Positions 36,528 through 63,573 of a stretch of 64,000 nt of DNA are shown one piece after another. Position 1 is the stretch's first letter; every line of letters begins with the position of its first letter. A program made the position numbers and the translations under genes. Below the pieces are notes generated by a model. That model ran no database searches and had not been told where the DNA came from. It worked only from the letters and a program-made list of their open reading frames with translations. This stretch comes from Paraburkholderia phenazinium (GTDB taxonomy: Bacteria > Pseudomonadota > Gammaproteobacteria > Burkholderiales > Burkholderiaceae), in NCBI RefSeq assembly GCF_900141745.1, contig NZ_FSRM01000002.1, positions 1,178,001 to 1,242,000 on the forward strand, given 5' to 3'.

Positions 36528-36543
36528 TGGCACACCCTATGCA
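36528..36543 (+). promoter_or_regulatory. Sigma54 (-24/-12) promoter of the tandem peptide operon
   Basis: TGGCAC-ACCCT-ATGCA matches the sigma54 consensus TGGCAC-N5-TTGCA at ten of eleven defined positions and has the obligatory GG-N10-GC spacing. The first peptide ATG is 72 bases after the GC. Together with the similar element at 49967 it ties the peptide genes to the sigma54 activator encoded at 59867-61159. Confidence 0.75.
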
Positions 36544-36613
36544 TTAGCTGGTGTGAGCGCGACACCCGATGCTCACTTAACGTAACCCGCATAACACTTT
36601 AGGAGTATTAACC

Positions 36614-36871
36614 ATGAAATCGACTCTCATGATCAAGGATCTGCCGATCGCCGAAGAACTCGACAGCAAGGCAATGTCAGCCGTGCGTGGCGGTAGCGCA
36701 ATCTCCATCGTCGGCGGCAATGGCCAGAACGTGGTCGGCGGCGGCGGCTTTGCCAGCCCGACGACGGGTATCCAGGTTGGACCGGCCGTCAACACGGTCG
36801 ATGCAAGCTCGCATCTCAACCTGAGCCTCCCCACCATCCAGAATTTCGGTGGCACCCAGCTGGTTGTCTAA
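36614..36871 (+). CDS. GG-leader peptide 1 (tandem set)
   Basis: 85 residues; ATG after TTTAGGAGTATTAACC. The N-terminal 27 residues form a double-glycine leader (I-K-D-L-P, E-E-L-D, K-A-M-S-A-V-R-G-G) of the kind cut by C39 peptidases of ABC exporters. The predicted mature part is about 58 residues with no Cys, rich in Gly, Asn, Ser, Thr, with GGNGQNVVGGGGFASPTTG and a C-terminal half of alternating polar/apolar residues ending QNFGGTQLVV. It is nearly identical to peptide 2. The likely exporter is the C39-ABC/HlyD/NodT system at 50407-59870. Function unknown: bacteriocin-like, signalling or self-assembling surface peptide are all possible. Confidence 0.85.
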   Translation: MKSTLMIKDLPIAEELDSKAMSAVRGGSAISIVGGNGQNVVGGGGFASPTTGIQVGPAVNTVDASSHLNLSLPTIQNFGGTQLVV

Positions 36872-36882
36872 ACAATGTGCGT

Positions 36883-36904
36883 GCCAACCCCACGACGGGG
36901 TGGC
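36883..36904 (+). repeat. Hairpin between peptide genes 1 and 2
   Basis: GCCAACCCC (36883) and GGGGTGGC (ending 36904) form a strong stem around ACGAC. It starts 12 bases after the peptide 1 stop. Equivalent hairpins follow peptides 2 and 3, suggesting transcript stabilisation, processing or partial termination that sets the dosage of each peptide. Confidence 0.6.
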
Positions 36905-36934
36905 CACATCAATCTTTTCTCCAAGGAGTTAATC

Positions 36935-37195
36935 ATGCACTCGAACCTCATGATCAAAGATCTGCCCATCGCCGAAGAACTCGACAGCAAGGCAATGTCC
37001 GCCGTACGTGGTGGCAGCGCCATCGCTGTGGTCGGCGGCAATACCCAGAACGTGGTTGGCGGCGGCGGCTTTGCCAGCCCGACGACGGGCCTGCAGATCG
37101 GGCCGGCCGTCAACACGACCGACGCGAGTTCGCATCTCAACCTGAGCATCCCCACGGTCCAGAACTTTGGCGGCTTGCAAGGCGTATTGCTGTAA
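36935..37195 (+). CDS. GG-leader peptide 2 (tandem set)
   Basis: 86 residues from the ATG at 36935, eight bases behind AAGGAG. The leader differs from that of peptide 1 only at residues 2 and 4 and ends in AVRGG at 26-27. The 59-residue core keeps GGGGFASPTTG, DASSHLNLS and QNFGG but varies at about a dozen positions, mostly conservative (I/V/L, T/S), and ends LQGVLL. No Cys. A recent tandem duplication of peptide 1 is evident at the DNA level. Confidence 0.85.
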   Translation: MHSNLMIKDLPIAEELDSKAMSAVRGGSAIAVVGGNTQNVVGGGGFASPTTGLQIGPAVNTTDASSHLNLSIPTVQNFGGLQGVLL

Positions 37196-37204
37196 CAGGT
37201 GCGC

Positions 37205-37230
37205 GCGTCACCCTTCGCGGAGGGTGACGC
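37205..37230 (+). repeat. Perfect 10-bp hairpin between peptide genes 2 and 3
   Basis: GCGTCACCCT (37205-37214) and AGGGTGACGC (37221-37230) are exact complements around TCGCGG. It lies 10 bases after the peptide 2 stop and 27 bases before the peptide 3 start, with no T-run, so RNA stabilisation or processing is more likely than simple termination. Confidence 0.65.
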
Positions 37231-37257
37231 CCGTCCGCTCAACTCCAGGAGTCAGTC

Positions 37258-37518
37258 ATGCAATCGACCCTTATGATCAGAGATCTGCCCGTTAGCGAAC
37301 AACTTGACCGCAAGGGCATGTCCGCTATTCGCGGTGGCAGCGCACTCGCCGGCGTCGGCGGAAACTACGGCAACGTGTTCGGCGGCGGCGGCTTTGCCAG
37401 CCCCACCATCGGTATCCAGGTTGGGCCGATCGTGACGACCACCGACGCGAGCCAGCATGTCAACGTTAGCATTCCGAACATCCAGAATTTCGGCGGCTAT
37501 CAGCTAAACGCGCTGTAA
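37258..37518 (+). CDS. GG-leader peptide 3 (tandem set)
   Basis: 86 residues; ATG behind CCAGGAGTCAGTC. The leader (I-R-D-L-P-V-S-E-Q-L-D-R-K-G-M-S-A-I-R-G-G) is diverged from peptides 1 and 2 but keeps every consensus position. The core has GGNYGNVFGGGGFASPTIG, DASQHVNVSIPNIQNFGGYQLNAL. Conservation of GGGGFASPT, DASxHxNxS and QNFGG across three copies, while flanks vary, points to selection on the core, not just the leader. Confidence 0.85.
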   Translation: MQSTLMIRDLPVSEQLDRKGMSAIRGGSALAGVGGNYGNVFGGGGFASPTIGIQVGPIVTTTDASQHVNVSIPNIQNFGGYQLNAL

Positions 37519-43995: not shown

Positions 43996-44193
43996 CTATG
44001 ATTTGGCGGTTGGAACAGGTTGACGCATGGATGAAAAGCCTTGCGGATATTCGACGAGACGGGTTGGGTTTGGTGCTGGTTGCAGAAGCGAGCCGTACTG
44101 TGCCCCGCTTCGCGCGCCACCTACGATGGCTGTCATGGCCTGCCTGTCGAGTTCGACGCTGTCTGGAAGATCCTTGATTGCGATGATAGCCAT
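43996..44193 (-). CDS. GG-leader peptide 4 (short, Pro-rich core)
   Basis: 65 residues; ATG at 44193 behind AAGGAACAACC. The 26-residue leader (I-K-D-L-P-D-S-V-E-L-D-R-Q-A-M-T-A-I-V-G-G) follows the shared consensus, with V instead of R before GG. The 39-residue core is the shortest of the six and different in character: five prolines, three arginines, two tyrosines, no Cys (ARSGAQYGSLLQPAPNP...). It is basic rather than Asn/Gly-rich. It converges on the molybdenum hydroxylase operon and has a weak sigma54-like element 69 bases upstream. Confidence 0.8.
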   Translation of the reverse strand: MAIIAIKDLPDSVELDRQAMTAIVGGARSGAQYGSLLQPAPNPTRLVEYPQGFSSMRQPVPTAKS

Positions 44194-44562
44194 GGTTGTT
44201 CCTTATGTCGTGATCGCCTGATTGCGTGGAATGAAGGTAGAGCTCTTCGGAATGTGACGGAGCAGCGGGAAATCCATAAAGGACTGCTTCGATTCAGTAT
44301 AGACAATGCATCGCTCGCACGTGTTTTGCTCTGCACGGATGCGCCTGGCGCGATGACTGGGAAGTGATGGGCTGAAACCAACACAATAGGGCGATGCTGT
44401 TAGAAGCGGCACAACACCTGTGTATTGCAGGACGCTCTTGTGACATTGTTGTGTAATCCTGAATTGCGGAAGGCATGGGTGCGGACTAGTATCGATCGTG
44501 AGCATGTAACTTCTTACGACAGGTTGATTACGGTTTATCGGGAGCTGCGTGGCTTTAAAAAA
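44194..44562. other. Divergent spacer between peptide 4 and the kinase gene
   Basis: 369 bases. On the reverse strand TGGATT-TCCCG-CTGCT (44276-44261) has GG-N10-GC spacing and lies 69 bases from the peptide 4 start, the same distance as at the stronger sites, but its -24 box is poor. CCAACA at 44378-44383 is one copy of the motif repeated upstream of peptides 5 and 6. The kinase frame is open back to 44425, so part of this stretch may be coding. Confidence 0.4.
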
Positions 44563-46719
44563 ATGGCAAACCTTGCGCACGCGATTAGCGAATTCCAGAA
44601 CGGCGAGCTGTCGCAAGATGACTTCATCGCACAGCTCGACAGCACGCTGACGAAGGACAGTGTTGGTTCGGCACGGCTACTGGAGATATTGGGTGAAGCA
44701 CATACACACATGCCGCTGCCTCCGGAGGTGTACGCGGAAGTTCAGCGCAGGATCGAGCGGCTGAGCGGCGCCAACCTGACACTGGGCGGCGGCGAGACGC
44801 GTGTGCAGACAACGCCGCGATATTCCGCGTCCCTTGCGGGCAGTCCAGCGCAATCTGCAAGCGGCGCAGGACAATCGAGACAATCGGTGCAACCCGGACA
44901 AGCGGGTGCGCCTTCTGATGCTCAGGCCGCCACCAGTTCCGAGGCTGTCAAAGGCGTTGGCGACACGCTCAATAACCGCTTCGTGCTGGAAGAATGCCTC
45001 GGCGTCGGTGGCATGGGCACGGTGTACAAGGCACTTGACCTGCGCAAGCTGGAAGCATCCGACCGCAAGCCCTACGTCGCCATCAAGGTCCTCAACGTAC
45101 AGTTCCGCGGCAATCCCCAGTCGCTGATCGCGCTGCAACGTGAAGCCAAGAAAGCTCAGGTGCTGGCGCACCGCAATATCGTCACCGTCTACGACTTCGA
45201 CAGGGACGGTGCGGTCGTCTATCTGACGATGGAATATCTGTCTGGCAAGCCGCTCAGCCGTCTGTTGCGCAACAAGAATTTCAAGGGGATGCCATACGAC
45301 GCGGCGCTGCCGATCGTCAAAGGCATGGCCAGCGCGCTCGCCTATGCTCACGAGCATGGTTTCGTACACTGCGACTTCAAGCCAGGCAATGTGTTGCTGA
45401 CGGACAAGAGCGACGTCAAGGTGATCGACTTCGGTATCGCCCGGGCGTTTCAGCGGCCTGATGAGGAGAGCGATGCAACCGTGTTCGATCCGGGCACGCT
45501 CGGCGCGCTGACGCCTGCTTATGCGAGTCCCGAGATGCTCGAGCATCTCGAGCCCGATCCGCGTGACGACGTGTATGCGCTCGGTTGCATTGTCTATGAA
45601 CTGCTGACGGGACATCACCCGTTCGGCCGGCTCGCGGCCACCCAGGCCCGTAGTGCCGATCTCAAGCCGCAGCGTCCCGAAGGTTTGGGTACGCGCCCGT
45701 GGCGGGCCTTGCGCGGCGCTCTCTCCTTCGATCGCCGTACGCGCATGCCGACCGTCAACCGGTTCGTCAGCGAATTCTCGGCCCAGCCGCGTATTACAAG
45801 GCAACGCATGATGATTGCCGGGGGCGCTGCGCTCGCAGGGCTGAGCGTGGCTGCCCTCGGAGTCCTTTGGTACCGGATGCCTGGCAATTCTAACGGTGCG
45901 CCGAGTACAGCTTCAGCGCCACTGATTGCGGCGGCGCCGGCAACGTCGAAAGCGTTGACCGACCGCGTGCAAACGCCAGCGCCGCAAGCTGCATTGGCGT
46001 CAGGGGTGGCGTCGTCGTTAGCCGCGGTGTCGGCGCCGCTTCCACCCACGCTCGCATCGGTCGCCACATTGCTTGCGCACATGCCGTGTTCCGCGCTCGC
46101 CGCCTCGGTACAGAGCCATGCGGTAAAAGTGCATGGTTTCGTGCCGCAGGCAAACGGTATCGCCACGCTCAAGGATCGCCTGAGTGCGCTGCCGGGTGTG
46201 AGCACACTGAATGTCGACGTGACACCGGTTGCAGCGGACAAATGCGATGTCATTCAGTTCGTAGCGCCATACTGGACCCGCAACTGGCAGGCTGGCCACC
46301 CCGCCGCGCTTCAGGTGAAAGCGACTGACGGGCAACTTGCGGAGGGCGATCCTCTGGTGGTCAGCTTGACGACACCGGACTATGAGTCGTACGTGAATAT
46401 CGACTACTACCAGTTAGACGGCAGTGTCGTGCATATGGTGCCCAGTCCGCGCGCGCCAGATAATCAGGCACCGGCGAATTACGCAGCGACCGTCGGCGGC
46501 GCGGGGGACTGGGTGATTGCCAAACCGTTCGGAACCGAACTGGTGGTGCTGATGGTCACGCCGGCACCGCTCTTCAACGCACTCCGGCCGGAAAGCGAAG
46601 CGCGCGCGGAGTATCTGCGCGCACTCGACACACGTCTCACACAGATCGCGGGCAAGTATGGTCCGGATCACATCGTGGCCGACGTTACTCAGATCAACAC
46701 CCAACCTCGCAAGCAGTGA
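44563..46719 (+). CDS. Membrane Ser/Thr protein kinase with HCD catalytic loop and DUF4384-like domain
   Basis: 718 residues if the ATG at 44563 is used (an earlier ATG at 44425 is possible; neither has a good site). After a helical, Gln/Ala-rich N-terminus comes a Hanks-type kinase: glycine loop LGVGGMGTVYKA, K175 in VAIK, catalytic loop H269-C-D-F-K-P-G-N, D289 in IDFG and YASPEML. The Arg of HRD is Cys, so it is a non-RD kinase. A membrane helix (about 417-437) is followed by an Ala/Pro linker and a periplasmic DUF4384-like domain (LVVSLTTPDYESYVNIDYYQLDG). It likely phosphorylates proteins read by the FHA protein at 52131 and reset by the PP2C at 61185. Confidence 0.9.
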   Translation: MANLAHAISEFQNGELSQDDFIAQLDSTLTKDSVGSARLLEILGEAHTHMPLPPEVYAEVQRRIERLSGANLTLGGGETRVQTTPRYSASLAGSPAQSASGAGQSRQSVQPGQAGAPSDAQAATSSEAVKGVGDTLNNRFVLEECLGVGGMGTVYKALDLRKLEASDRKPYVAIKVLNVQFRGNPQSLIALQREAKKAQVLAHRNIVTVYDFDRDGAVVYLTMEYLSGKPLSRLLRNKNFKGMPYDAALPIVKGMASALAYAHEHGFVHCDFKPGNVLLTDKSDVKVIDFGIARAFQRPDEESDATVFDPGTLGALTPAYASPEMLEHLEPDPRDDVYALGCIVYELLTGHHPFGRLAATQARSADLKPQRPEGLGTRPWRALRGALSFDRRTRMPTVNRFVSEFSAQPRITRQRMMIAGGAALAGLSVAALGVLWYRMPGNSNGAPSTASAPLIAAAPATSKALTDRVQTPAPQAALASGVASSLAAVSAPLPPTLASVATLLAHMPCSALAASVQSHAVKVHGFVPQANGIATLKDRLSALPGVSTLNVDVTPVAADKCDVIQFVAPYWTRNWQAGHPAALQVKATDGQLAEGDPLVVSLTTPDYESYVNIDYYQLDGSVVHMVPSPRAPDNQAPANYAATVGGAGDWVIAKPFGTELVVLMVTPAPLFNALRPESEARAEYLRALDTRLTQIAGKYGPDHIVADVTQINTQPRKQ

Positions 46720-48716: not shown

Positions 48717-48879
48717 ATTCAAATCCTGGTTGTCCGTACCGAACCTGCTTCCCGATGAAACAACGATAGCACGCGCCACATGCGTCACAAGGTTAACGAA
48801 TGGTTCGTTTCTTTTTGTGAAGTTACGTTCTAAGCTAAAGGACGAAATACGAGCTCCGCACTCCCAAAGGAGGCGCAAC

Positions 48880-49305
48880 ATGCCAGTAAGAACAGCGCTC
48901 AGTGTTCTGGCCGTGATCTGCCTGACGGCCGCGGCGCCAGTCCCGCACCAGTCGCCGTCGCCGCCCGGCGCCGAGGAGTACATCATCTGGCCACCCGACG
49001 GCACCGTGATTCACGGCGGCAAGCTCTGGGTGCGAATGGGCTTGCGCGGCATGGGCATCTGTCCGAAGGGCGTCAGTTTTCCCAATAGCGGGCATCATCA
49101 TCTGCTGATCGATACCGATCTTCCGCCGCTCGACCAGCAGATCCCCTCAGACCGCAATCATCTGCACTACGGTGCGGGCGAAACCGACGCGCGCGTCGAA
49201 CTCGCGCCGGGTACCCATACCCTGCAGCTTCTGCTCGGGGATGAGAACCACGTGCCGCAGGTTCCCGCGGTGTATTCGAAAAAGATCACCATTTACGTAC
49301 GTTAG
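48880..49305 (+). CDS. Exported DUF4399 protein, copy 1
   Basis: 141 residues; the ATG at 48880 follows AAAGGAGGCGCAAC, a very strong ribosome site. A signal peptide ends near AAAPVPHQ. The DUF4399 domain has [55 protein letters not shown] and YSKKITIYV. The histidine clusters (HHH and N-H-L-H) could bind a metal. A close copy follows 45 bp downstream. Function unknown; the two lie divergently from the caspase/SUMF1 gene and just before the peptide 5/exporter operon. Confidence 0.85.
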
Positions 49306-49776: not shown

Positions 49777-49966
49777 CTACATCAATGCTGTGTCGGGCAT
49801 TGTCTGTTGGTGTGGCGCCAACGGTGTGAATGGATCGTGTTGGAACGCGGCAATCACATGGCGGCTTGCAGATCCTGACGATGCAAGAGGCTACGTCCTT
49901 CGATTTGCTGAGCAGCGGCGTGATTTCAGGCGATTGGGTGCTTTTGAGCGGGCAGCAGCGGGGTTA

Positions 49967-54629: not shown

Positions 54630-55980
54630 GCCGCTTGCCGAGGCGCTGGAAGATCACAGCGCCGAAGGCATCGCGATCCTGACCGCCGAGCCGGTGCGGT
54701 TGGCACGCGCGCTCGTGCTCCTCATGGTCGGGCTCGTGATCGCCGGTCTGCTCTGGTCGTTTTTCGGGCGCGCCGACGTGATCGTGAATGCGCAAGGCAC
54801 GCTTGCGCCCGAGTCGGAGGTACGCCGCTTCTACGCGCCCATCGACGGCGAACTCGCGGACCTCTATGTGGCTGAAGGCCAACCGGTCTCGAAGGGGGAC
54901 GTGCTGGCGCGCCTGAACGCCCGTGGTGCGATCGAGGCGGCGAGCAACGCTCTGCAGGCACAACTCAAACTCGAGGAGGCCGAGCGCGAGTGGCGCGAAT
55001 TTCCCGAGAAGAAGGCGCTGATGGAGCGCAAGGCTGCGGCATTGAAGGAACAGATGGAAGTGGAATCCAATCTGCACCAGAACCGCATGTCGGAGGGGAC
55101 GACCAAGCTCGCCGAAGGGCAGCGGGCGCTGCTCGAAGAGGCGCGCAGCAATCTCGACAACGCGCGGCACGCACGCGATGCGGCACGCGACGAACAGGAT
55201 AAATATGTGCGCCTGTTTGCGCAGCCGGGTGGCGGTGGTGTCGCGGAACTCCAGGTCGAAGCGAAGAAAAACGCCTATCAGGAGGCGGAAAACGCCTACC
55301 GTGTGGCGCAATCGAAACTCTCCGAACTGGACTTCCAGTTGAGCCACGAATATGCACAGGCCAATGCACAACTCGCCACGAGCGGCGAGCAAGCCACCGA
55401 CCTGCAGATTCAATACGATTCCGCGGTACGCGATATCGCCACGGCTGAGGACAAGGTGCGGCTGGAACTGCAGAGTGCCCGTCTCGTGGCGGACGCAGCC
55501 GCGCGGATTCGCTTCGAGAATATCGACAAGGACAACTTTCTTTTGATCGTCGCGCCGGTCTCTGGCGTCGTCACGGATGTGACCTCGACGCAACCCGGCG
55601 ACAAGGTACAGGCCAACACGCCGCTCGGGGCGATCGCGCCGCAGGACGCAAGACCGGTGTTGAAGGTTGAGATTGCCGAGCGCGATAGGGCCTTTCTGCA
55701 TGAAGGTCAGTCCGTCAAGCTGAAGTTCAATGCGTTTCCGTATCAGCGCTATGGGTTGATCAACGGCACCCTGGAGTACATCTCGCCGGCGACGAAACCT
55801 TCCGCACAGGATAAACAACCGGTCTACGAAGGGCGGGTTGCACTCGAACAGAACTACTACCAGGTAGCAGGCAGCCGATACGCGTTGCGTTATGGCATGA
55901 CTGCCAATGCCGAAATCGTCGTGCGCGAGCGGCGTCTGATCGATCTCGGCCTCGACCCGTTCAGGCAACTGGCCGGATGA
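54607..55980 (+). CDS. HlyD-family periplasmic adaptor of the C39 exporter
   Basis: 457 residues from the GTG at 54607 (GGAGGCACCGGCA upstream), inside the end of the FHA gene. One N-terminal membrane helix (ALVLLMVGLVIAGLLWSFFG), a biotinyl-lipoyl half (VRRFYAPIDGELADLYVAEGQPVSKGDVLARL), a long coiled-coil hairpin with KAALKEQMEVESNL and EARSNLDNARHARDAARDEQ, then the second lipoyl half and beta-barrel (VSGVVTDVTSTQPGDKVQANTPLGAI; LKVEIAERDRAFLHEGQSVKLKFNAFPY). It bridges the ABC protein and the outer-membrane channel. Confidence 0.92.
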   Translation: MKREIHLKPLAEALEDHSAEGIAILTAEPVRLARALVLLMVGLVIAGLLWSFFGRADVIVNAQGTLAPESEVRRFYAPIDGELADLYVAEGQPVSKGDVLARLNARGAIEAASNALQAQLKLEEAEREWREFPEKKALMERKAAALKEQMEVESNLHQNRMSEGTTKLAEGQRALLEEARSNLDNARHARDAARDEQDKYVRLFAQPGGGGVAELQVEAKKNAYQEAENAYRVAQSKLSELDFQLSHEYAQANAQLATSGEQATDLQIQYDSAVRDIATAEDKVRLELQSARLVADAAARIRFENIDKDNFLLIVAPVSGVVTDVTSTQPGDKVQANTPLGAIAPQDARPVLKVEIAERDRAFLHEGQSVKLKFNAFPYQRYGLINGTLEYISPATKPSAQDKQPVYEGRVALEQNYYQVAGSRYALRYGMTANAEIVVRERRLIDLGLDPFRQLAG

Positions 55981-56023: not shown

Positions 56024-56776
56024 ATGACCGCGATAGTGCGAATCGATGACGAAGTCGTGGACGTCGCCGAGTTCATACGTCTACTGAAACTGACCGGACA
56101 GTTCGAGAGCTTGATTGAAGGCGTCGTGCGAGAGAAGCTCACCGTCCACGCGGCGAGAAAGCAGGGCGTCCGGATATCCGAGGACGAAATACAGCAGCGT
56201 GCCGATCAGTTTCGCCGGGTACGCGGCCTGCATCGAGCGACCGACATGAATCACTACCTCGACGCGCTTGGGGTGAGTCTTGACGAGTTCGAGCGCTTCA
56301 TCACCGACGGCCTCTACCAGGAGAAGATGCTCGCCACGATCGGAGACCGGGTCGCAGTGCAAGAGTACTTCTCATTGAATTCGCCAAGGTTCGACGCGAT
56401 CGAAGTCAGCCATGTCGTGCTGGACAGCGAGGGCAAAGCGCGCGAAATGATCTCAGTGCTGCGCGACGATCCCGACAGCTTCGCCGAGATGGCGCGCGAA
56501 CACTCGATTGCCGAGACGCGAGAGCGCGGCGGCGTAATCGGCAAAGTGCTGCGCGGCTCGCTGAAGCCCGAGATCGAAGCGAAGATTTTCAATGCCGAAG
56601 CGGGTGACCTACTGGGGCCATTTGCGTCGCCTGACGGCTCCTGCTACGAGATTTTCGCGGTGACGGCGAAACATCCCGCAACGCTCGACGAGGATGTCGA
56701 GGCCGAAATCCAGCGCCTGCTGCGCGAAGAGTGGCTGATGGCGCGCGCCCAGGAACACGTGATCGAAGTGCGTTAG
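56024..56776 (+). CDS. Parvulin (PpiC/SurA-type) peptidyl-prolyl isomerase
   Basis: 250 residues; AAGGAGCGGATGAG precedes the ATG. N-terminal SurA-like helical region (FIRLLKLTGQFESLIEGVVREKL, QRADQFRRVRGL) and a PpiC rotamase domain at about 120-230: AIEVSHVVLDSEGKAREMI, FAEMAREHSIAETRERGGVIGKVLRGSLKPEIEAKIF, GPFASPDGSCYEIFAV. No signal peptide or membrane anchor is evident, so it acts in the cytosol, probably on the precursor peptides or transporter before export. Parvulin genes beside C39 transporters are known in cyanobacterial bacteriocin clusters. Confidence 0.88.
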   Translation: MTAIVRIDDEVVDVAEFIRLLKLTGQFESLIEGVVREKLTVHAARKQGVRISEDEIQQRADQFRRVRGLHRATDMNHYLDALGVSLDEFERFITDGLYQEKMLATIGDRVAVQEYFSLNSPRFDAIEVSHVVLDSEGKAREMISVLRDDPDSFAEMAREHSIAETRERGGVIGKVLRGSLKPEIEAKIFNAEAGDLLGPFASPDGSCYEIFAVTAKHPATLDEDVEAEIQRLLREEWLMARAQEHVIEVR

Positions 56777-56810: not shown

Positions 56811-59800
56811 ATGGATGCACCACAGACAGCTTCGCCCGCGGTCGACTTCCTCTCGACGGTCGAGATTCTCTCGCCATTTTCGCGGGACGAACTCGAACGG
56901 CTGGCCGCGCACGCCGAGTCCCGGCATTTCGCATTCGGCGAAACCGTATGCAATGCCGGCGAACCCGCGGACGGACTGTTTGTGATCAAGTCCGGCTCGG
57001 TGCGCATCTTTACCGAGGAACGGGGTAAAGAAATCAGCATGGGAGTACGCAAGACCGGCGAGATTTTTGCGGACATCGCGATGCTGCGCGACTATCTGCA
57101 CGAGTCGTCGGTGCGTGCATCGGCGAAGACTGAACTGCTGTTTATTCCGCGTATTGCCATCGAGCCTGTGATCGCCGCCAACCCGGACGCGTTGGCGTTC
57201 GTGACGAGCTATGTCGCAATCAGCTCAGCCGGCGGATTTGTCACGCAACTGTTCGACTTACGCAGCAAACTGAACAAGGCCGAACTCGAAGAATGTGTGC
57301 GTAGCGTCGGTGCGAAACGGATGGGCGCGGACAAGGAGATCCTCAAGCAGGGCGCGCGGGAAGACCGCCGGCTCTATGTGGTCCGTCAGGGTGAGGTGCG
57401 CCTTGTGCGGCACGAAGAGGGCCGCGATTACGTGCTGGCGACGCTTCGGCAAGGCGAGATCTTCGGTGAGAAGGCCTGTTTGCTGCGCCAGGAGCAGATG
57501 GTCTCGGTCATTGCCAACACCGAGACCCGGCTTCTCGTCATCCCCGAGAAAACGGTGCACTTCATTCTGGAGCGCAACCCGAAGCTGCGCGAAGCGCTCG
57601 AAGAACGGATCCGCTTTGCGGAACGGGAGCTGGAAAGACAAAAGCGCGTCGAGCAGCGACGCAAGCACCCCGTGGTGCTCGACCTTCATACGAAACCGGA
57701 GTCCGGCGAAAAGGTGATCCGGCGTTTTCCGCTGGTCGAGCAGGCCGAGGAGATGGATTGCGGCGCGGCCTGTCTTGCGATGATCTGCAGGCACTACGGC
57801 ATCTCGATGACGCTCGGCAAGCTGCGCGATCTGGCCAATGTGACGACCATGGGCGCGACACTGGACAGTCTGGCGCGGGCTGGCGAATCGCTAGGATTTA
57901 CCACACGGGGCGTTCAGTGCATCTATGAGTCGCTACGTAGCTTCGAGCTGCCTTTCATCGTGCATTGGGAGGGGTACCACTATATTGTTGTGTATGGAAC
58001 CTCGAAGGAATGGGTGTGGATAGCCGACCCGGCGCTCGGCTTCAGGAAGCTGAGTGTGGAGGACTTCGAGCGCGGCTGGAGCGGCACCTGCCTGCTGTTC
58101 ACGCCCGGACCCAACCTGGTGCAGATGGCGGCGTCACGTTCGCCGTGGATCCGCTTTGTTGGGTACCTGACTCCGTACCGGAAAATTCTCGCGCATCTCT
58201 TTCTGGCGACCTTCGTGATCCAGGTGCTCGGCGTAATTCCGCCTCTCATCATCCAGAACATTCTCGACGGCGTAGTCGTACACCAGAACGTCAGCCTGCT
58301 TGAACTGCTGATCGTAGGGCTGATCGTCTCCAGTGTGTTTTCACAACTCATGGCGACGGTGCGCGCCTATCTGGCGAATTTCATGGTGCGCAACATGGAC
58401 TTCGCGATGATGTCGCAGTTCTTCAAGCATACGATGTCGCTGCCGTTTTCCTTCTTCGCCAGCCGCAAGACCGGCGACATCTTCGCGCGCTTTCAGGAGA
58501 ACCAGACCATTCGCGCGTTCCTGACCGAATCGACGGTGACGACCGCGCTGAATCTGCTGATGGTGTTCATCTACTTTACGATCATGTTTGTCTACAACGT
58601 GAAGATGACGCTGGTTCTGATTGGCTTCGTCATTCCCATCGTTGCGCTGACCGCGCTCGCCACGCCGAAGATCAAACGTTACGCGCGCGAAGTATTCGCC
58701 GCATCGACGGATTCCAAAGCATTCCTGATGGAAGCGCTCGCCGGCGTCGAGACGATCAAGGGCATGGGTATGGAGCGTCCGGTTCGTCTCAGGTGGGAAA
58801 AGAAATACGCGAAGGCACTCGAAGTGCAGTACCGGTCGCAGGCGTTCAACATTCTGGTGGGCCTTGGCAGCCAGTTGCTGAACGCGGCAACGAGCATCGC
58901 GATCCTGTGGGTAGGTGCGAATCTCGTGCTCGCTCGTGAACTGACCATCGGTCAGTTGATCGCCTTCAATGCGTTCATGGGCAGTGTGCTAGGCCCATTG
59001 ATGGGCCTGGTCAGCCTGTGGAGCATGCTCAACGACGCGGGCGTCGCCATGGAACGGCTAGGCGATGTGCTCGATATCGAGCCCGAACAGAAGCCTGAAG
59101 ATCTGGCCGCGCGTGTGATCCTGCCTGATCTCCAGGGCGAAATCAGCCTGAGCGGTGTGTATTTCCGCTACGGTGGCAGCGAAAACGAATACGTGCTCGA
59201 GAACATCAGCTTCGATATCAAGCCGGGCGAGCTCGTGGCGATCGTCGGCCGCAGCGGCTCGGGCAAGACGACGCTCGCCAAGCTGCTGGTCGGTTTTTAC
59301 GGCCCCAACGAGGGCAAGATGACGGTCGACGGCTACGACCTCAACGTGATCGACAAGGCGTGTTATCGCGGGCAGATCGGCTATGTTATGCAGACCAATC
59401 TGCTGTTTTCCGGGACGATCGCAGACAACATCGCGAGCGGCGACGATGCGCCGGACCGGCGCCGCATCGAGGAGGTCGCAAAGATGGCGGACGCGCACGC
59501 ATTCATCAGCAAGATGCCGCTCGGCTACGAACAGGTAGTGGGCGAGCGCGGTGTCGGACTGTCGGGCGGCCAGATCCAGCGCTTGTGCATTGCGCGGGCG
59601 CTTTACCACGACCCGAAACTGCTGGTGTTCGACGAAGCCACCTCGGCGCTCGATACGCAGTCCGAAAGCAATATTCTCGGCAATATGCACGACATTCTGA
59701 AAGGGCGTACTGCGGTCATCATCGCGCACCGCCTGAGTACGATCATGCGCGCCGACAAGATTCTCGTGCTGTACGAAGGCGCTATCGCCGAGCAGGGGCG

Positions 59801-59870
59801 TCACGAGGAACTGGTTCAGCGCAAGGGGATGTACTACCAGCTCGTACAGAAACAGTTGAGTGCCGGATGA
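56811..59870 (+). CDS. C39-peptidase ABC exporter with two N-terminal cNMP-binding-like domains
   Basis: 1019 residues. Order: two cyclic-nucleotide-binding-fold domains (about 10-145 and 160-280; PADGLFVIKSGSVRIF and RRLYVVRQGEVRLVRHE) whose phosphate-binding cassettes lack the G-E...R-A residues and may not bind ligand; a C39 bacteriocin-processing peptidase with complete triad C317 (MDCGAAC), H390 (GYHYIVVYG) and D406 (ADPALG); six membrane helices (about 435-720); an ATPase with Walker A GRSGSGKT (813-820), signature LSGGQIQRL and Walker B LLVFDEATSAL. It should cut GG leaders and export the cores. Its end overlaps the sigma54 activator by 4 nt. Confidence 0.94.
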   Translation: MDAPQTASPAVDFLSTVEILSPFSRDELERLAAHAESRHFAFGETVCNAGEPADGLFVIKSGSVRIFTEERGKEISMGVRKTGEIFADIAMLRDYLHESSVRASAKTELLFIPRIAIEPVIAANPDALAFVTSYVAISSAGGFVTQLFDLRSKLNKAELEECVRSVGAKRMGADKEILKQGAREDRRLYVVRQGEVRLVRHEEGRDYVLATLRQGEIFGEKACLLRQEQMVSVIANTETRLLVIPEKTVHFILERNPKLREALEERIRFAERELERQKRVEQRRKHPVVLDLHTKPESGEKVIRRFPLVEQAEEMDCGAACLAMICRHYGISMTLGKLRDLANVTTMGATLDSLARAGESLGFTTRGVQCIYESLRSFELPFIVHWEGYHYIVVYGTSKEWVWIADPALGFRKLSVEDFERGWSGTCLLFTPGPNLVQMAASRSPWIRFVGYLTPYRKILAHLFLATFVIQVLGVIPPLIIQNILDGVVVHQNVSLLELLIVGLIVSSVFSQLMATVRAYLANFMVRNMDFAMMSQFFKHTMSLPFSFFASRKTGDIFARFQENQTIRAFLTESTVTTALNLLMVFIYFTIMFVYNVKMTLVLIGFVIPIVALTALATPKIKRYAREVFAASTDSKAFLMEALAGVETIKGMGMERPVRLRWEKKYAKALEVQYRSQAFNILVGLGSQLLNAATSIAILWVGANLVLARELTIGQLIAFNAFMGSVLGPLMGLVSLWSMLNDAGVAMERLGDVLDIEPEQKPEDLAARVILPDLQGEISLSGVYFRYGGSENEYVLENISFDIKPGELVAIVGRSGSGKTTLAKLLVGFYGPNEGKMTVDGYDLNVIDKACYRGQIGYVMQTNLLFSGTIADNIASGDDAPDRRRIEEVAKMADAHAFISKMPLGYEQVVGERGVGLSGGQIQRLCIARALYHDPKLLVFDEATSALDTQSESNILGNMHDILKGRTAVIIAHRLSTIMRADKILVLYEGAIAEQGRHEELVQRKGMYYQLVQKQLSAG

Positions 59871-61159
59871 AGATACTTGACCAGACCGAGGACCCGAGTC
59901 CCGCCATCTCTTACGCCGGCTTGATCGAGAAGATCGAAATCCTGCGTTCGATGTTGCGCTGGGCATCCAGGCTCGAGCGCGCCGACATCGAAAAAGTGCT
60001 CCGGCAGGCGAGCGTACTGCGTGACGAGGTGATGCAACTGTCGCACAAGGAGCGCTTCGTGCAGGCGGTGGCGGAGCCCGTGCGCGTTGAACTGTCGCGC
60101 GGCGCACGACGCGAGGCGTTGCTGGCACGCAGCTTCATTTTCGAGGGGACATTCGGCGACAATCCACAACTGCTCGAAGCGCTCGAAATCGCGGAGAAGG
60201 CGGCACCCACTGAGTTACCCGTGTTGATCGACGGCGAGAGCGGTACCGGCAAGGAACTGATGGCGAAGGTGATTCACGCAAACGGCAGCCGTGCGGACAA
60301 GCCGTTTATCTCGGTCAATTGCGGTGCGATTCCCGAGAACCTGCTGGAGTCCGAACTGTTTGGTCATCGGAAAGGGGCGTTTACAGGTGCGTCGAGCGAC
60401 CGGAAGGGCAAGTTCGAAAGCGCGCACACCGGGACGATTTTTCTCGACGAGATTGGCGAGTTGCCGCTGGCGGGCCAGGTCAAACTGTTGCGCGTGCTGG
60501 AAGCGCATGAAATCCAACGCGTGGGTTCGGACGAGACGATCGCGGTCGACACGCGCATTGTCGCGGCGACCAACCGCAACCTGCGGCGCCTGAGCGAAGA
60601 AGGCAAATTTCGCGAGGACCTGTTTTACCGGCTCAGCGTGATACACATCACCTTGCCGCCCCTGCGCGAACGGCGCGACGAGATCCCGCTGCTGCTTGCG
60701 TACTTCAGCGACGAAGCGGCCGGCATCCTGAAGCGCCGTCCAGTTCGAATGACACCACGGTTGCGCGATTTCCTGCTGACCTATCCCTATCCCGGCAATA
60801 TTCGCGAACTGCGCAACGTCATCTACCGGATCTCGTGCCTCGCAGGCGATACGGCGGATGTCGAGCATCTGCCAGTGGATGTACGACCCAGTTCAGCGTC
60901 GCCGTCCGCATCCGCCGTAAGCGTGGTGCCGAATCTGATGTCGCTCGGTGATGCCAAACGTGCAGCCAGCGACGAGGCGGAGAAAGTGTTCCTCGAACGC
61001 GGTCTCCAGGAAGTGGGCGGCACCGTTGCCGAACTGGCGCGGCGCGTCGACATGAACCGCTCTCATCTGCAAATGCTGCTCAAGAAGCACGGACTGCATT
61101 CAAAAGACTTCCGTCATCGCAACGGCCAGACGCATGACAAGGAGCCGGGCAGCAGTTGA
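59867..61159 (+). CDS. Sigma54-dependent transcriptional activator without receiver domain
   Basis: 430 residues; its ATG overlaps the ABC stop (ATGA), which excludes longer frames. About 90 helical residues (IEKIEILRSMLRWASRLERADIEKVL) replace the usual receiver or GAF sensor. The AAA+ domain has Walker A GESGTGKE (123-130), the sigma54-contact loop G-A-F-T-G-A (170-175), Walker B TIFLDEIGELP and the R-E-D-L-F-Y-R-L region; the C-terminus has a Fis-type helix-turn-helix (GTVAELARRVDMNRSHLQMLLKKHGL). It should act on the sigma54 promoters found ahead of the peptide genes, including the one driving its own operon. Confidence 0.93.
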   Translation: MKILDQTEDPSPAISYAGLIEKIEILRSMLRWASRLERADIEKVLRQASVLRDEVMQLSHKERFVQAVAEPVRVELSRGARREALLARSFIFEGTFGDNPQLLEALEIAEKAAPTELPVLIDGESGTGKELMAKVIHANGSRADKPFISVNCGAIPENLLESELFGHRKGAFTGASSDRKGKFESAHTGTIFLDEIGELPLAGQVKLLRVLEAHEIQRVGSDETIAVDTRIVAATNRNLRRLSEEGKFREDLFYRLSVIHITLPPLRERRDEIPLLLAYFSDEAAGILKRRPVRMTPRLRDFLLTYPYPGNIRELRNVIYRISCLAGDTADVEHLPVDVRPSSASPSASAVSVVPNLMSLGDAKRAASDEAEKVFLERGLQEVGGTVAELARRVDMNRSHLQMLLKKHGLHSKDFRHRNGQTHDKEPGSS

Positions 61160-61184: not shown

Positions 61185-61955
61185 CTAGGGTGTGGGATTC
61201 AGGAGGGTTTTGTCGGCGGCGGAGGGGTCTTCGGCACGGACCACGACAGCGGTGATGTTGTCGCGGCCGCCGCGCGTAAGGGCAGCTGCAATCAAGGCCT
61301 CGCAGGCAGCGTCGCAATCGGCCGCGATCAACGCGGCCTGCATCTGCTGCGCACTCAATTCGTTACTTAACCCATCGCTGCACAGCAGGAACATGTCACC
61401 GTCGGCTACGGCCAGCGTGTTGGTGTCGAATTCGAGCTGATCGGTCGCACCCACCGCACGGGTAATCACGTGTTGGGCCGGATGATTGACCGCTTCTTCC
61501 TCAGTGAGAAGTCCAAGCGCCTTGAGCTCCTCAATCTGGCTGTGATCGCGGGTCAGTTGCCGCAAATGGCCATCGCGGTACAGATACAGCCGGCTGTCGC
61601 CCGCCCACAGATAGCCGCAGTAGCTATCGCATGCGAACAGCGCAACGACTGTACTGCCGATCACGGATACTTGCCGTCTTGCGGCTTCCTGCCTCAGCCG
61701 TTGATTGACCGTCAGCAGGCGTTTGCGCGCGTCCGCGAGGTAGCGGGCAATCGTATCGGGCGCAGACAGACGGCTTAGCGCGTCGACGATCAAGCCGCTC
61801 GCGAGGTCGCCGACGGCATGGCCTCCCATGCCATCGGCGACTGCCCAGCAGGCGCGCTCCGGCTGCTGCAGGCAGGCGTCCTCATTGTGTTCGCGGACCC
61901 GGCCCACATCCGAGCGGGCCGCCGATACCCATCTGAATTGACTGGTACACGTCAC
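61185..61955 (-). CDS. PP2C-family Ser/Thr protein phosphatase
   Basis: 256 residues from a GTG at 61955, five bases after the stop of peptide 6; the frame runs further up but would overlap that gene. All PP2C metal and catalytic motifs are present: A-R-S-D-V-G-R-V-R-E-H-N-E-D, A-D-G-M-G-G-H, I-G-S-T-V-V, A-G-D-S-R-L-Y, ITRAVGA, L-C-S-D-G-L-S and R-G-G-R-D-N-I-T. It is soluble and cytosolic. It would oppose the kinase at 44563. Co-transcription with peptide 6 places phospho-control under the same sigma54-type promoter. Confidence 0.9.
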   Translation of the reverse strand: MTCTSQFRWVSAARSDVGRVREHNEDACLQQPERACWAVADGMGGHAVGDLASGLIVDALSRLSAPDTIARYLADARKRLLTVNQRLRQEAARRQVSVIGSTVVALFACDSYCGYLWAGDSRLYLYRDGHLRQLTRDHSQIEELKALGLLTEEEAVNHPAQHVITRAVGATDQLEFDTNTLAVADGDMFLLCSDGLSNELSAQQMQAALIAADCDAACEALIAAALTRGGRDNITAVVVRAEDPSAADKTLLNPTP

Positions 61956-61960: not shown

Positions 61961-62251
61961 TTACGCCGCATGGTTCGTGCTGCGTTCGTCGGGAGAAGCA
62001 TTGATGTTCGCACCCGTTCCGGTGTTGTTGACATTGATCGACTGGAACTGGTTGATCATCTGTCCAGCATAGAAGTTGTTGGTGGTCTGGTACAGGTTGG
62101 CGACAACGGGGCCGGCGCTCGGCGTACTTGGCGTGAACGGCTGTATCCAGCCGTATAGCCACGGGGCGCCGTCTCCGCCGCGGATCATCGCCATTGCCTT
62201 GTGGTCAAGCGCGAAGCTGTCTGGAAGGTCGTGGATCGTAATGGAAGCCAT
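61961..62251 (-). CDS. GG-leader peptide 6 (upstream of PP2C)
   Basis: 96 residues; ATG at 62251 behind CCGGAGACTCGAC. The 26-residue leader reads I-H-D-L-P-D-S-F-A-L-D-H-K-A-M-A-M-I-R-G-G. The 70-residue core begins with an aromatic/Pro stretch (DGAPWLYGWIQPFTPSTPSAG) and continues with an Asn/Gln-rich half (NLYQTTNNFYAGQMINQFQS, INVNNTGTGANINA). No Cys. It is the longest core of the six and differs from all others. The PP2C gene follows 5 bases after its stop. Confidence 0.82.
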   Translation of the reverse strand: MASITIHDLPDSFALDHKAMAMIRGGDGAPWLYGWIQPFTPSTPSAGPVVANLYQTTNNFYAGQMINQFQSINVNNTGTGANINASPDERSTNHAA

Positions 62252-62314
62252 GTCGAGTCTCCGGAGTGGTCGCCGACTCGCGACCGCGGTTCATGGGGTA
62301 GATGGCCGATACGG

Positions 62315-62330
62315 TGCAAGTAACGTGCTA
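62315..62330 (-). promoter_or_regulatory. Sigma54-like promoter of peptide 6/PP2C
   Basis: On the reverse strand TAGCAC-GTTAC-TTGCA has a perfect -12 box and a -24 box with one substitution (A for the first G of GG). The peptide 6 ATG is 65 bases downstream, within the 58-74 range seen at the other peptide genes. Loss of a GG position lowers confidence. Confidence 0.55.
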
Positions 62331-62439
62331 GCTTTGCGGCGCTTTGTGCGCATGCCGGTAAGCCTTTGATTGCGCGGGAATTGTTCGTTAGTCCTCGCGT
62401 GGAGCGGGGCACGCGGCACAGCGAAATGTGGGGGCCTCG

Positions 62440-62556
62440 CCAACACTGGTGGATGCAGCTGTGTCCGCGACCCAACACATCGGACGGACGTCGTGGAATG
62501 CTTCGGGCTCCTGATATGGCGGGCAGCCTCCAACAGTTTGGCACGACGAGTGTTGG
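62440..62556. promoter_or_regulatory. Four TGTTGG/CCAACA motifs, possible enhancer for two sigma54 promoters
   Basis: CCAACA at 62440-62445, 62472-62477 and 62530-62535 and TGTTGG at 62551-62556 lie in a 117-bp block between the divergent peptide 6 and LRAT-like genes. Gaps of 32 and 21 bases approximate three and two helical turns. The same hexamer occurs twice (33 bp apart) upstream of the peptide 5 promoter and once upstream of peptide 4. Binding by the sigma54 activator is inferred. Confidence 0.4.
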
Positions 62557-62633
62557 CCAGGCACTGACATAGTAACCTCGGCCACTTTCGAAAATTATCC
62601 GATTCCTTAGGGAAATCAATGGCTTGAATGCTC

Positions 62634-62649
62634 TGGTCCGGTTGATGCA
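62634..62649 (+). promoter_or_regulatory. Weak sigma54-like element before the LRAT-like gene
   Basis: TGGTCC-GGTTG-ATGCA keeps GG-N10-GC and a good -12 box, but the -24 box matches only TGG and the final C. The gene starts 74 bases downstream, the spacing seen at the peptide genes. It could be chance in GC-rich DNA. Confidence 0.35.
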
Positions 62650-62721
62650 AGAGAGCTCGCAACAGTGTTGGATATGTGTGCAAGCGCCGCTTGCGGGAAC
62701 CCGGAAACACAGAGGCGAGCC

Positions 62722-63252
62722 ATGAACAGCAAACAACAAGACGTCCGTAGCGAACGGCAACGCGTAATGCGTAGCGCGGCTGGCGCCTCGTCGGACCTTC
62801 CGTTCGTTGACGAATGCGACATACCGCTCGGCGCGCATCTCGTGACGAGCCGTGGTGGCTACGAACACCACGGCATCTACGTAGGCGCAGGCAAGGTCGT
62901 TCACTACGCGGGGTTTGCCGCCGGCCACTGCCGCGGTCCCGTCGTTGAAGTCACGCTGGACCGTTTTGCCGCCGGTAGCGCGATTGCAATCCGCCTTCAT
63001 CCCTGTGCGCAATACATGGGCGCGGAGGCCGTTTTGCGGGCCCGTTCGCGCCTGGGCGAAAACCGCTATCGCCTGTTGACGAACAATTGCGAGCATTTTT
63101 GTGCGTGGTGCCTGTCCGGTGAGAGTCGCAGCCAGCAGGTCGAGACTTGCCTCACGCATCCGCGCGCGGGGCTGCATGTATTGGCGAGCCTTTTCAAGGC
63201 CCTCGTCGCAGCCGAATTGAAGGGTGCCTATTCGGGCGCCCGTGTCGCCTGA
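62722..63252 (+). CDS. LRAT/NlpC-P60-like acyltransferase or amidase-fold protein
   Basis: 176 residues from the ATG at 62722 behind GAGGCGAGC. The LRAT-domain triad-type residues are present: H50 in E-H-H-G-I-Y-V-G, H61 in V-V-H-Y-A-G, and nucleophile C123 in N-N-C-E-H-F-C-A-W-C. DIPLGAHLVTSRGGYEHHG is typical of bacterial LRAT-domain proteins. These circularly permuted papain-like proteins transfer or hydrolyse acyl groups; bacterial members are little known. No signal peptide. It is divergent from peptide 6 and may share its control region, so acylation of an exporter component or peptide is conceivable. Confidence 0.83.
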   Translation: MNSKQQDVRSERQRVMRSAAGASSDLPFVDECDIPLGAHLVTSRGGYEHHGIYVGAGKVVHYAGFAAGHCRGPVVEVTLDRFAAGSAIAIRLHPCAQYMGAEAVLRARSRLGENRYRLLTNNCEHFCAWCLSGESRSQQVETCLTHPRAGLHVLASLFKALVAAELKGAYSGARVA

Positions 63253-63324
63253 TGGCCGTTCCGTTCACAGAACTTAGGTTGCGAACGACGGGCTGTAGGG
63301 CCTCAAGCTTCGAAGGGGAATGAC

Positions 63325-63573
63325 ATGTATGCCGCCGAAAAGTCTTTGCGTTGGATCGTCGATAAGTGGCTCGCGCCCACCCCCGCGATGCCGGCACGCG
63401 TCACCCGTCTTTGTCGTGCGGGTTCGCGTCGTGGGTGTGTGGTGTGCGTCGAGACAACGCGTCCCGGAGGTGTACTCTCGATCGTCTTCTTTCGTCATGA
63501 CGACGGTTCGTGGAATGTGTTTCCTCCAGTGGCCGAGCGTCCGGCGATGAACGGCTACAGGCGGGCTGCGTGA
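63325..63573 (+). CDS. Small hypothetical protein
   Basis: 82 residues; AAGGGG seven bases before the ATG. The sequence (MYAAEKSLRWIVDKWLAPTP ... VFFRHDDGSWNVFPP ... RPAMN) is basic, with two Cys close together (G-C-V-V-C-V) and a beta-rich C-terminal half, and no signal peptide. I recognise the style from short Burkholderiaceae proteins without assigned function. It lies 72 bp after the LRAT-like gene on the same strand and converges with the hydrolase gene. Function unknown. Confidence 0.65.
   Translation: MYAAEKSLRWIVDKWLAPTPAMPARVTRLCRAGSRRGCVVCVETTRPGGVLSIVFFRHDDGSWNVFPPVAERPAMNGYRRAA

What the first reader, a model, noticed from the sequence alone, without database searches (positions are those of the whole stretch)
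36528..63573. A dispersed double-glycine peptide export system with phospho- and sigma54 control
Seen: six genes encode different peptides behind one shared leader (consensus I-x-DLP-x3-ELD-x2-AM-x-A-I-R-GG), and the same 27 kb encodes a C39-ABC exporter, HlyD adaptor, NodT-type channel, parvulin, double-FHA protein, Ser/Thr kinase, PP2C phosphatase and a sigma54 activator. Known: C39 ABC proteins cut after GG and export the core. Inferred: all six peptides are cargo of this one exporter, and the kinase/FHA/phosphatase set gates secretion. I recall no described system with this combination; the cores lack Cys, so they are not lanthipeptide- or microcin-like in the usual sense.
Basis: partly seen in the sequence, partly recalled or inferred. 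Interest (0 to 1): 0.88.

Follow-up and report, generated by a model that had tools for sequence, protein, structure and literature searches.

The report
Phospho-controlled secretion system for small peptides
Soil bacteria of the Paraburkholderia group carry a conserved set of genes that appears to switch on, trim and export a family of small, mostly cysteine-free peptides, combining a peptide exporter with a kinase-phosphatase control pair that is usually seen in other machines; what the peptides do is not known.

Summary
Six short genes share a double-glycine leader, and the named export and signalling genes are there. In 80 fetched loci of named genomes the main gene order recurs (72 of 80 have HlyD and FHA in the flank). 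In 58 genomes of the genus, leader, two-cNMP C39 exporter and kinase are found in the same 42 genomes (in one, decaying) and in none of the other 16; 143 of 150 listed leaders lie on the exporter's contig, within 21.1 kb.

New here: peptide genes, hardly the machinery genes, carry sigma54-type -24/-12 sites (129 of 178; 38 of the other 49 stand behind another peptide gene), with TGTTGG/CCAACA sites above 121 of 126. Distant exporters (35-38% identity) in other families still have activator, parvulin, HlyD or FHA genes beside them.

The LodA-like gene inside the interval is a bystander (5 of 58 genomes).

The exporter half resembles cyanobacterial 'long-type' C39 clusters and HetC; the kinase/PP2C/FHA half resembles the type VI phospho-switch. 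My searches listed no paper on the combination. Phospho-gating and the peptides' role are inferred; no fold was predicted for the cores. Verdict: real, conserved module, new variant of a known kind.

The parts
36614..36871 (+). GG-leader peptide pepA1 (27-aa leader, 58-aa core)
36935..37195 (+). GG-leader peptide pepA2
37258..37518 (+). GG-leader peptide pepA3
36528..36543 (+). sigma54-type -24/-12 site, 86 bp above pepA1; best PWM score in the window
43996..44193 (-). GG-leader peptide pepB (26-aa leader, 39-aa core, K+R 4, D+E 1), divergent from the kinase
44365..44383 (.). enhancer-like TGTTGG-N7-CCAACA, 1 mismatch, between pepB and kinase (second, 2 mismatches, at 44398-44416)
44425..46719 (+). 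Ser/Thr kinase with one predicted membrane segment and a weak DUF4384 match (24.7 bits, cut-off 27) behind it
46773..49004 (-). caspase (C14) + FGE-sulfatase domain protein; real start probably at a signal-like segment about residue 97 of this ORF (by eye)
48643..49305 (+). DUF4399 protein, first copy (ORF start uncertain)
49351..49776 (+). DUF4399 protein, second copy
49805..49823 (.). enhancer-like TGTTGG-N7-CCAACG above pepC (second, 2 mismatches, at 49838-49856)
49967..49982 (+). sigma54-type site 72 bp above pepC
50039..50320 (+). GG-leader peptide pepC (26-aa leader, 67-aa core)
50407..51909 (+). NodT-type outer membrane channel
52131..54629 (+). two FHA domains, membrane segment near residue 335, large C-terminal part
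54607..55980 (+). HlyD-type adaptor
56024..56776 (+). parvulin-type PPIase, no signal peptide seen by eye
56811..59870 (+). 2x cNMP-binding + C39 peptidase + ABC exporter; catalytic C317, H390, D406 assigned by eye from recalled C39 motifs
59867..61159 (+). sigma54 activator (AAA+ with GAFTGA, weak Fis-type HTH), overlapping the exporter gene's stop
61185..61955 (-). PP2C phosphatase, directly downstream of pepD
61961..62251 (-). GG-leader peptide pepD (26-aa leader, 70-aa core), once in each of 73 loci
62315..62330 (-). sigma54-type site (one mismatch in the -24 element), 79 bp above pepD
62427..62445 (.). enhancer-like TGTTGG-N7-CCAACA, 1 mismatch, above pepD (others with 2 mismatches at 62517 and 62551)
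62722..63252 (+). LRAT-domain protein, conserved beside pepD
63325..63573 (+). small conserved protein, no Pfam family

Best explanation
A dedicated type I secretion module for a family of double-glycine peptides. (1) With sigma54, the activator encoded behind the exporter gene switches on the peptide genes through -24/-12 promoters and TGTTGG/CCAACA upstream sites (sites shown; binding inferred). (2) The 26-27 residue leader, with a low-confidence helix in both models, docks on the C39 domain, which cuts after GG (leader and catalytic residues shown; cleavage inferred from family knowledge). (3) ABC protein, HlyD adaptor and NodT channel carry the core in one step to the outside (parts shown; transport inferred). 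(4) A membrane kinase, a PP2C phosphatase and a membrane protein with two FHA domains form a phosphothreonine switch that probably assembles or licenses the exporter; the tandem cNMP domains add a nucleotide signal (membership of the module shown by co-occurrence and synteny; gating inferred by analogy). (5) The cores have few charged residues and are rich in N, V, S, A, G, T; they often occur as tandem paralogues, and in this window no further gene fits directly behind pepA3, pepB, pepC or pepD, which favours an extracellular structural or signalling role over killing (inferred).
For: Co-occurrence: in 58 genus genomes leader 42, exporter 42 (41 full length plus the decaying one of G008), kinase 42 (broken in G008), the same 42 (set identity). 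Of the 150 leader hits that one search listed, 143 lie on the exporter's contig, all within 21.1 kb; 7 are on other contigs. Ten of the 16 negative genomes carry other, 32-37% identical ABC exporters. Order sample: leader 2 of 250, exporter 2 of 250, the same two. Synteny in 80 loci: ABC 80, activator 80, PpiC 79, PP2C 74, pepD 73, HlyD 72, FHA 72, OEP 71, DUF4399 67, CaspFGE 66, LRAT 66, pepC 57. Promoters: 129 of 178 peptide upstreams, 126 of them with the site 55-110 bp above the start, and 38 of the 49 without lie within 600 bp behind another leader peptide; Markov mean 7.0 for a slightly looser form; ABC 0 of 82, HlyD 0 of 73, FHA 2 of 71, OEP 3 of 70. Enhancer: 121 of 126 against 15.7 shuffled; 27 of 29 GTTGG-N7-CCAAC dyads in 1.78 Mb lie there. 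pepD Ka/Ks 0.15 leader, 0.22 core. Distant loci keep activator, PpiC, HlyD or FHA beside the exporter.
Against: No export, cleavage or phosphorylation data. The enhancer dyad with one mismatch is not commoner than its reversed control in the own genome (15 against 14 places), though 3 of the 15 fall in this window. 11 of 178 peptide upstreams have neither the promoter motif nor a leader peptide close in front. In this window pepB has only a degenerate GG-N10-GC element and pepA1 no upstream site with 2 or fewer mismatches. LRAT (15 of 66) and the small gene (6 of 65) also have the motif. Five of 80 loci show no leader within the flank, and 8 of 80 lack HlyD and FHA there. AlphaFold gave no fold for the cores (mean pLDDT 41.6 and 56.2). 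The activator has no FHA domain, so nothing direct ties it to the kinase. Related genomes are not independent.
Confidence: 0.7

Rival explanations
1. The cores are bacteriocins (microcin-like) released to kill relatives.
For: Double-glycine leader plus C39 exporter is the classical route of class II bacteriocins and microcins (recalled); several divergent cores per genome would fit a toxin repertoire.
Against: In this window 68 bp, 31 bp, 86 bp and no space separate pepA3, pepB, pepC and pepD from the next gene behind them (coordinates), so no immunity gene follows directly; other loci were not searched for one. pepA1, pepB, pepC and pepD match no Pfam or PHROGs family and the six match no NCBIfam family. 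pepD occurs once per locus and is under purifying selection. Charged residues make up 8.1% of core residues.
Confidence: 0.2
2. The peptides are precursors of modified natural products; caspase-FGE or LRAT protein (or the FAD and LodA-like enzymes here) modifies the core before or after export.
For: FGE/PvdO-type and LRAT domains are conserved beside the peptides; LRAT genes have the promoter motif in 15 of 66 cases; the parvulin weakly matches a 'putative peptide maturation' family (TIGR04500, 98 bits, cut-off 180).
Against: 164 of 178 cores lack Cys, the usual FGE and lanthionine target (recalled); the caspase-FGE protein has a signal-like segment by eye; the LodA-like gene is in 5 of 58 genomes.
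Confidence: 0.2
3. The kinase, phosphatase and FHA protein are mere neighbours with other duties (general envelope signalling), and only exporter plus activator serve the peptides.
For: No physical link was tested; the activator lacks an FHA domain; kinase, FHA and HlyD are outside the flank in some loci.
Against: The kinase is present in exactly the exporter-positive genomes and 39 of 42 lie on the same contig within 18.6 kb; all 8 fetched kinase loci have a leader peptide on the strand opposite to the kinase (L095-L101, L102); FHA proteins adjoin the exporter in 3 of 7 distant loci by Pfam (L126, L129, L130) and in a fourth by a weak phmmer hit (L112), and L130 has a cNMP-kinase fusion gene there; the genes decay together in G008.
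Confidence: 0.15

Closest known systems
Cyanobacterial 'bacteriocin' clusters of groups I, II and VI with long-type C39 ABC protein (PMC3140520; passages seen)
   Same: CAP_ED(cNMP)-C39-ABC exporter with HlyD and a rotamase protein (SurA), double-glycine precursors nearby.
   Different: The words kinase, phosphatase, FHA, forkhead and sigma do not occur in its main text; precursor subclasses named in the passages are NHLP and N11P.
HetC of Nostoc PCC 7120 (PMC10986499; passages seen)
   Same: cNMP-C39-ABC exporter; its cNMP part binds ppGpp in vitro; catalytic residues needed for cell differentiation.
   Different: No gene with a double-glycine leader was found near hetC and its substrate is open; FHA and forkhead do not occur in the text, and the single hits for kinase, phosphatase and sigma concern other matters.
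Threonine phosphorylation pathway of type VI secretion, PpkA/PppA/Fha (PMC5995506, PMC3953482; search listing with abstract starts only)
   Same: Kinase, phosphatase and FHA protein that switch a secretion machine.
   Different: Here the machine is a type I peptide exporter; no type VI part among the genes annotated here (32958-63996).
Rv1747 and PknF of Mycobacterium tuberculosis (PMC3908365, PMC5549992; search listing with abstract starts only)
   Same: FHA-domain ABC exporter under a cognate Ser/Thr kinase.
   Different: FHA domains are in the ABC protein itself; no leader peptides, C39 domain or sigma54 that I know of (recalled).
RaxX-RaxSTAB of Xanthomonas (PMC6637879; search listing with abstract start only)
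   Same: Small precursor peptide with its own exporter in a Gram-negative (C39 type is recalled).
   Different: Tyrosine-sulfated peptide in a 5-kb cluster; no phospho-switch or sigma54 set is mentioned in the listing.

Membership tests
Peptidase-containing ABC exporters (PCAT) | C39 domain fused to ABC exporter, with catalytic Cys, His, Asp | tested here: met
   PF03412 132.9 bits over cut-off 22; C317/H390/D406 assigned by eye; HlyB has Tyr where C317 stands
Peptidase-containing ABC exporters (PCAT) | cuts the leader after GG and exports the core | not testable with these tools
   needs biochemistry
Type I secretion system | ABC protein, HlyD-type adaptor and TolC/NodT-type channel encoded together | tested here: met
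   ABC 80, HlyD 72, OEP 71 of 80 loci
Double-glycine leader peptides | short ORF with conserved leader ending in GG and variable core | tested here: met
NHLP/Nif11 export systems | exporter over cut-off of TIGR03796 or TIGR03797 | tested here: not met
   560 bits against 853, and 403 against 709
Cyanobacterial long-type C39 clusters | cNMP-C39-ABC with HlyD and rotamase protein | tested here: met
   architecture only; no tree with cyanobacterial proteins was made, so membership is open
Type VI threonine phosphorylation pathway | kinase, phosphatase and FHA protein encoded with a type VI machine | tested here: not met
   kinase, PP2C and FHA present, but the machine is type I; no type VI part among the genes annotated here
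sigma54 regulon | activator with GAFTGA and -24/-12 promoters at the targets | tested here: met
   GAFTGA in sequence; promoter-like sites
sigma54 regulon | transcription depends on rpoN and on this activator | not testable with these tools
   needs mutants
Bacteriocin/microcin | cognate immunity gene beside the peptide | tested here: inconclusive
   no room directly behind the peptides in this window (coordinates); other loci not searched
Curli-type amyloid | match to curlin repeat | tested here: not met
   no Pfam match at E 0.05 for pepA1, pepB, pepC, pepD
Known anti-phage defence systems | system-specific PADLOC proteins | tested here: not met
   8 proteins scanned; only matches through shared kinase, caspase, phosphatase, ATPase and cNMP domains

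The most novel reading that the evidence does not exclude
A previously undescribed class of signalling-gated peptide secretion system, common in Burkholderiales and with distant versions in other families of the phylum: a type I exporter that is licensed by a type VI-like kinase/phosphatase/FHA switch and nucleotide-sensing domains, and that delivers asparagine-rich, charge-poor, mostly cysteine-free peptides which assemble outside the cell (matrix or fibre) under a dedicated sigma54 enhancer circuit.
Probability: 0.25. Interest if true: 0.85.

Novelty: new variant of a known kind. Interest (0 to 1): 0.62.

Why it matters
It gives Ser/Thr phospho-switches, known to me mainly from type VI secretion and Rv1747-like exporters, a new partner: a double-glycine peptide exporter. 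It points to hundreds of candidate secreted peptides (556 homologues at E 0.01) with one testable promoter logic, and it offers a substrate-rich relative in which the open question of what cNMP-C39 exporters such as HetC carry, and why they need a nucleotide sensor, can be tested.

Tried and rejected
Rejected: the LodA-like gene as a part (5 of 58 genomes; no match to a solved structure at E 0.01; 'LodA-like' is by eye and recall); its neighbours (FAD, MoCo, 2Fe-2S) were set aside with it without a search of their own. Rejected: NHLP/Nif11 systems, defence systems, phage families, curlin, an FHA domain on the sigma54 activator.

Led nowhere: AlphaFold of pepD and pepC, so no fold search was run; a pepC profile against solved structures gave nothing below E 0.3; literature searches for the combination (searches gave 0 papers; others gave 3, 1, 44 and 3, of which 3, 1, 15 and 3 were listed and none describes it by title or abstract start). 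The Ka/Ks script stopped with an error after pepD; pepC and pepA were not done. The genome-wide enhancer search did not exceed its control.

Dropped before counts: 2 of 180 peptide ORFs (upstream under 200 bp); 3 of 129 promoters (site not at 55-110 bp); 2 of 180 cores (length). One search listed 150 hits and said that more were not listed. In one search one base of the loose pattern was optional by a slip in the script; one search repeats it with the base fixed and gives the same 129 of 178.
Full report
What is there. The window is part of an 8.3 Mb, two-contig genome; the closest named loci of its exporter are Paraburkholderia phenazinium (97%) and Paraburkholderia sp. DHOC27 (94%). Six short genes share a leader of 26-27 residues ending in GG. 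Three (pepA1-3) are tandem paralogues with 68-79% identical cores; cores of pepA, pepB, pepC and pepD are 16-29% identical between groups.

Is it more than chance? A five-leader profile finds the sixth at E 2.8e-9; the next ORF of the window has E 0.41. In 80 named loci fetched by the exporter, the usual order is CaspFGE(-), DUF4399, DUF4399, pepC, channel, FHA, HlyD, PpiC, exporter, activator, PP2C(-), pepD(-), LRAT, small protein; counts of 80: exporter 80, activator 80, PpiC 79, PP2C 74, pepD 73, HlyD 72, FHA 72, channel 71, DUF4399 67, CaspFGE 66, LRAT 66, small protein 64, pepC 57. Some loci are cut by contig ends, and the kinase lies outside most flanks. 180 leader ORFs were found in 75 of the 80 loci; the five without are L041 (short), L073, L077, L081 and L086. 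Eight loci (Noviherbaspirillum, Herbaspirillum, a Rhodocyclaceae bacterium, and the cut L085) lack HlyD and FHA in the flank; there PpiC (except in L085), exporter and activator stay, and some keep PP2C and peptides.

Whole-genome test. In 58 genomes of the genus, the leader profile (E 0.01) is found in 42, the exporter in 42 (41 with a full-length match at 76-100% identity, and G008 in pieces), and the kinase in 42 (in pieces in G008); these are the same genomes. Ten of the 16 others have other ABC exporters of 32-37% identity. Of the 150 leader hits that one search listed, 143 are on the exporter's contig, all within 21.1 kb; 7 are on other contigs, in three genomes together with the kinase. 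Kinase and exporter share a contig in 39 of 42, at 6.8-18.5 kb. In 250 genomes of the order, 2 have leader and exporter, the same two. In 398 genomes of the phylum, 3 have the leader, and these are the 3 with a 78-100% identical exporter. So the leader goes with this exporter and not with other such exporters in general. The genomes are related, so these are not independent events, and the thresholds were mine.

A natural loss. In G008 (5.2 Mb) the exporter lacks about residues 314-391 in frame, which hold two of the three catalytic residues, and its matches change frame again near residue 890; kinase, CaspFGE, FHA, PP2C, LRAT and one DUF4399 gene also match in shifted frames or pieces. The module seems to decay as a unit.

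Transcription. I looked for -24/-12 sites in the 300 bp above 178 peptide genes. [TC]GGCA-N6-[TAG]TGC is in 129 (opposite strand 6), 126 of them at 55-110 bp, whose pattern was slightly looser by a slip, gives 129 too, with a Markov mean of 7.0 (maximum 12 in 20 runs) and 9 on the opposite strand. A stricter form (TGGC-N7-[TGA]TGC-[ATC]) is in 73, against a mean of 2.4 and 10 on the opposite strand; the strictest (TGGCAC-N5-TTGC) in 12 against 0.2. Of the 49 without the motif, 38 stand within 600 bp behind another leader peptide, as later genes of arrays would. Machinery genes mostly lack it: exporter 0 of 82, CaspFGE 0 of 69, HlyD 0 of 73, DUF4399 1 of 134, PpiC 1 of 79, FHA 2 of 71, PP2C 2 of 73, channel 3 of 70; LRAT has 15 of 66 and the small gene 6 of 65 (starts of these genes were estimated from length). 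In the window, sites above pepA1, pepC and pepD rank 1st, 4th and 6th of all positions on both strands. Above 126 of these promoters, TGTTGG or CCAACA occurs in 121 (shuffled mean 15.7), mostly 100-160 and 200-240 bp above the -24 element; 27 of the 29 exact GTTGG-N7-CCAAC dyads in 1.78 Mb of loci are there. Seven of the eight window sites with at most two mismatches (0-4 in ten shuffled windows) lie between pepB and kinase, above pepC, and above pepD. In the own genome, however, the one-mismatch dyad is no commoner than its reversed control, 15 against 14 places, with three of the 15 in this window. Kinase loci L097 and L098 show several leader peptides on the strand opposite to the kinase, and L098 has the promoter motif and an upstream site before the first gene.

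Machine parts. The exporter has two cNMP domains, a C39 domain and ABC parts, with C317, H390 and D406 assigned by eye; HlyB has no Cys there. The channel is a NodT family member over cut-off. The FHA protein has two FHA domains, a membrane segment and a large C-terminal part. The kinase has glycine loop, lysine, HxD and DFG stretches (recalled motifs, positions) and one membrane segment. The activator has GAFTGA but no FHA or receiver domain among its Pfam matches. PpiC has no signal peptide by eye; CaspFGE and DUF4399 have signal-like starts by eye.

Distant relatives. Seven further phylum genomes have an exporter of 35-38% identity, six over nearly the full length and G581 from residue 277; none has the leader profile. 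I took stretches around all seven. Activator, PpiC and HlyD precede the exporter in L125, L127 and L129; L129 also has an FHA protein and a channel behind it; L126 has PpiC, HlyD, exporter, FHA and three channel proteins; L130 has a cNMP-kinase protein, HlyD, exporter and FHA. L128's neighbours were not scanned; the G581 contig is 5.6 kb, with a weak FHA hit in L112. I infer that the combination of C39 exporter with FHA, kinase and sigma54 activator is old.

The cores. 178 cores have median length 68 and are rich in N (14.3%), V, S, A, G and T; 164 of 178 lack Cys; K, R, D, E make up 8.1% together. pepD is under purifying selection (median Ka/Ks 0.15 leader, 0.22 core; 136 pairs of 17 sequences, 131 and 136 unsaturated). 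AlphaFold gave a low-confidence helix in the leader and nothing for the cores. A structural or signalling role is my preference because of tandem paralogues, few charges and the lack of room for an immunity gene behind the peptides in this window; it is inference.

What is known. C39 exporters with an N-terminal cNMP domain, HlyD and SurA-like rotamase are described in cyanobacteria (PMC3140520, passages), and HetC's cNMP domain binds ppGpp while its substrate is open (PMC10986499, passages). Kinase, phosphatase and FHA control of type VI secretion (listing) and of Rv1747 by PknF (listing) are described. My searches for the combination listed no paper describing it; most subscription papers are outside that library, and only titles and abstract starts were seen.

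Verdict. The finding is real and the module is conserved, co-inherited and has a clear promoter logic. It is a new variant of a known kind. Gating by phosphorylation and the role of the peptides are open.

Noticed in passing
window 37586-40882 (-): FAD enzyme (weak QhpG/GoxB/LodB matches) next to a 768-aa protein without any Pfam or NCBIfam family, LodA-like by eye; it also stands next to pepA in G007. A possible quinone-cofactor oxidase pair unknown to the libraries.
   Followed up: partly
L130:6405-7901: Ser/Thr kinase fused to a cNMP domain, two genes before a C39 exporter related to this one and its FHA protein: the nucleotide and phospho signals may be one circuit.
   Followed up: partly
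L132/L133 (G008): Whole module decaying in a 5.2 Mb relative: exporter lacks the C39 centre and changes frame near its end, several partner genes broken.
   Followed up: partly
L066:14622-15793: In an Oxalobacteraceae genome three tandem pepA-like peptides stand directly beside a pepD copy whose reading frame ends early, so pepA probably belongs to this system.
   Followed up: no
L102:37-291: A leader with an insertion before its SIVGG end, with promoter motif and upstream sites: the leader may tolerate a longer helix.
   Followed up: no
window 62722-63252 and 66 of 80 loci: LRAT-domain gene conserved beside pepD, in 15 of 66 cases with its own sigma54-type site; a possible acyltransferase or hydrolase acting on the peptides.
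   Followed up: partly
window 46773-49004: Caspase-type peptidase fused to an FGE/PvdO-like domain, probably exported, in 66 of 80 loci.
   Followed up: no
kinase loci L095-L102 and L069: pepB-type cores are short with a recurring YPxGF stretch, unlike the other cores; the pepB-like cores of L076, L082 and L083 lack it.
   Followed up: no
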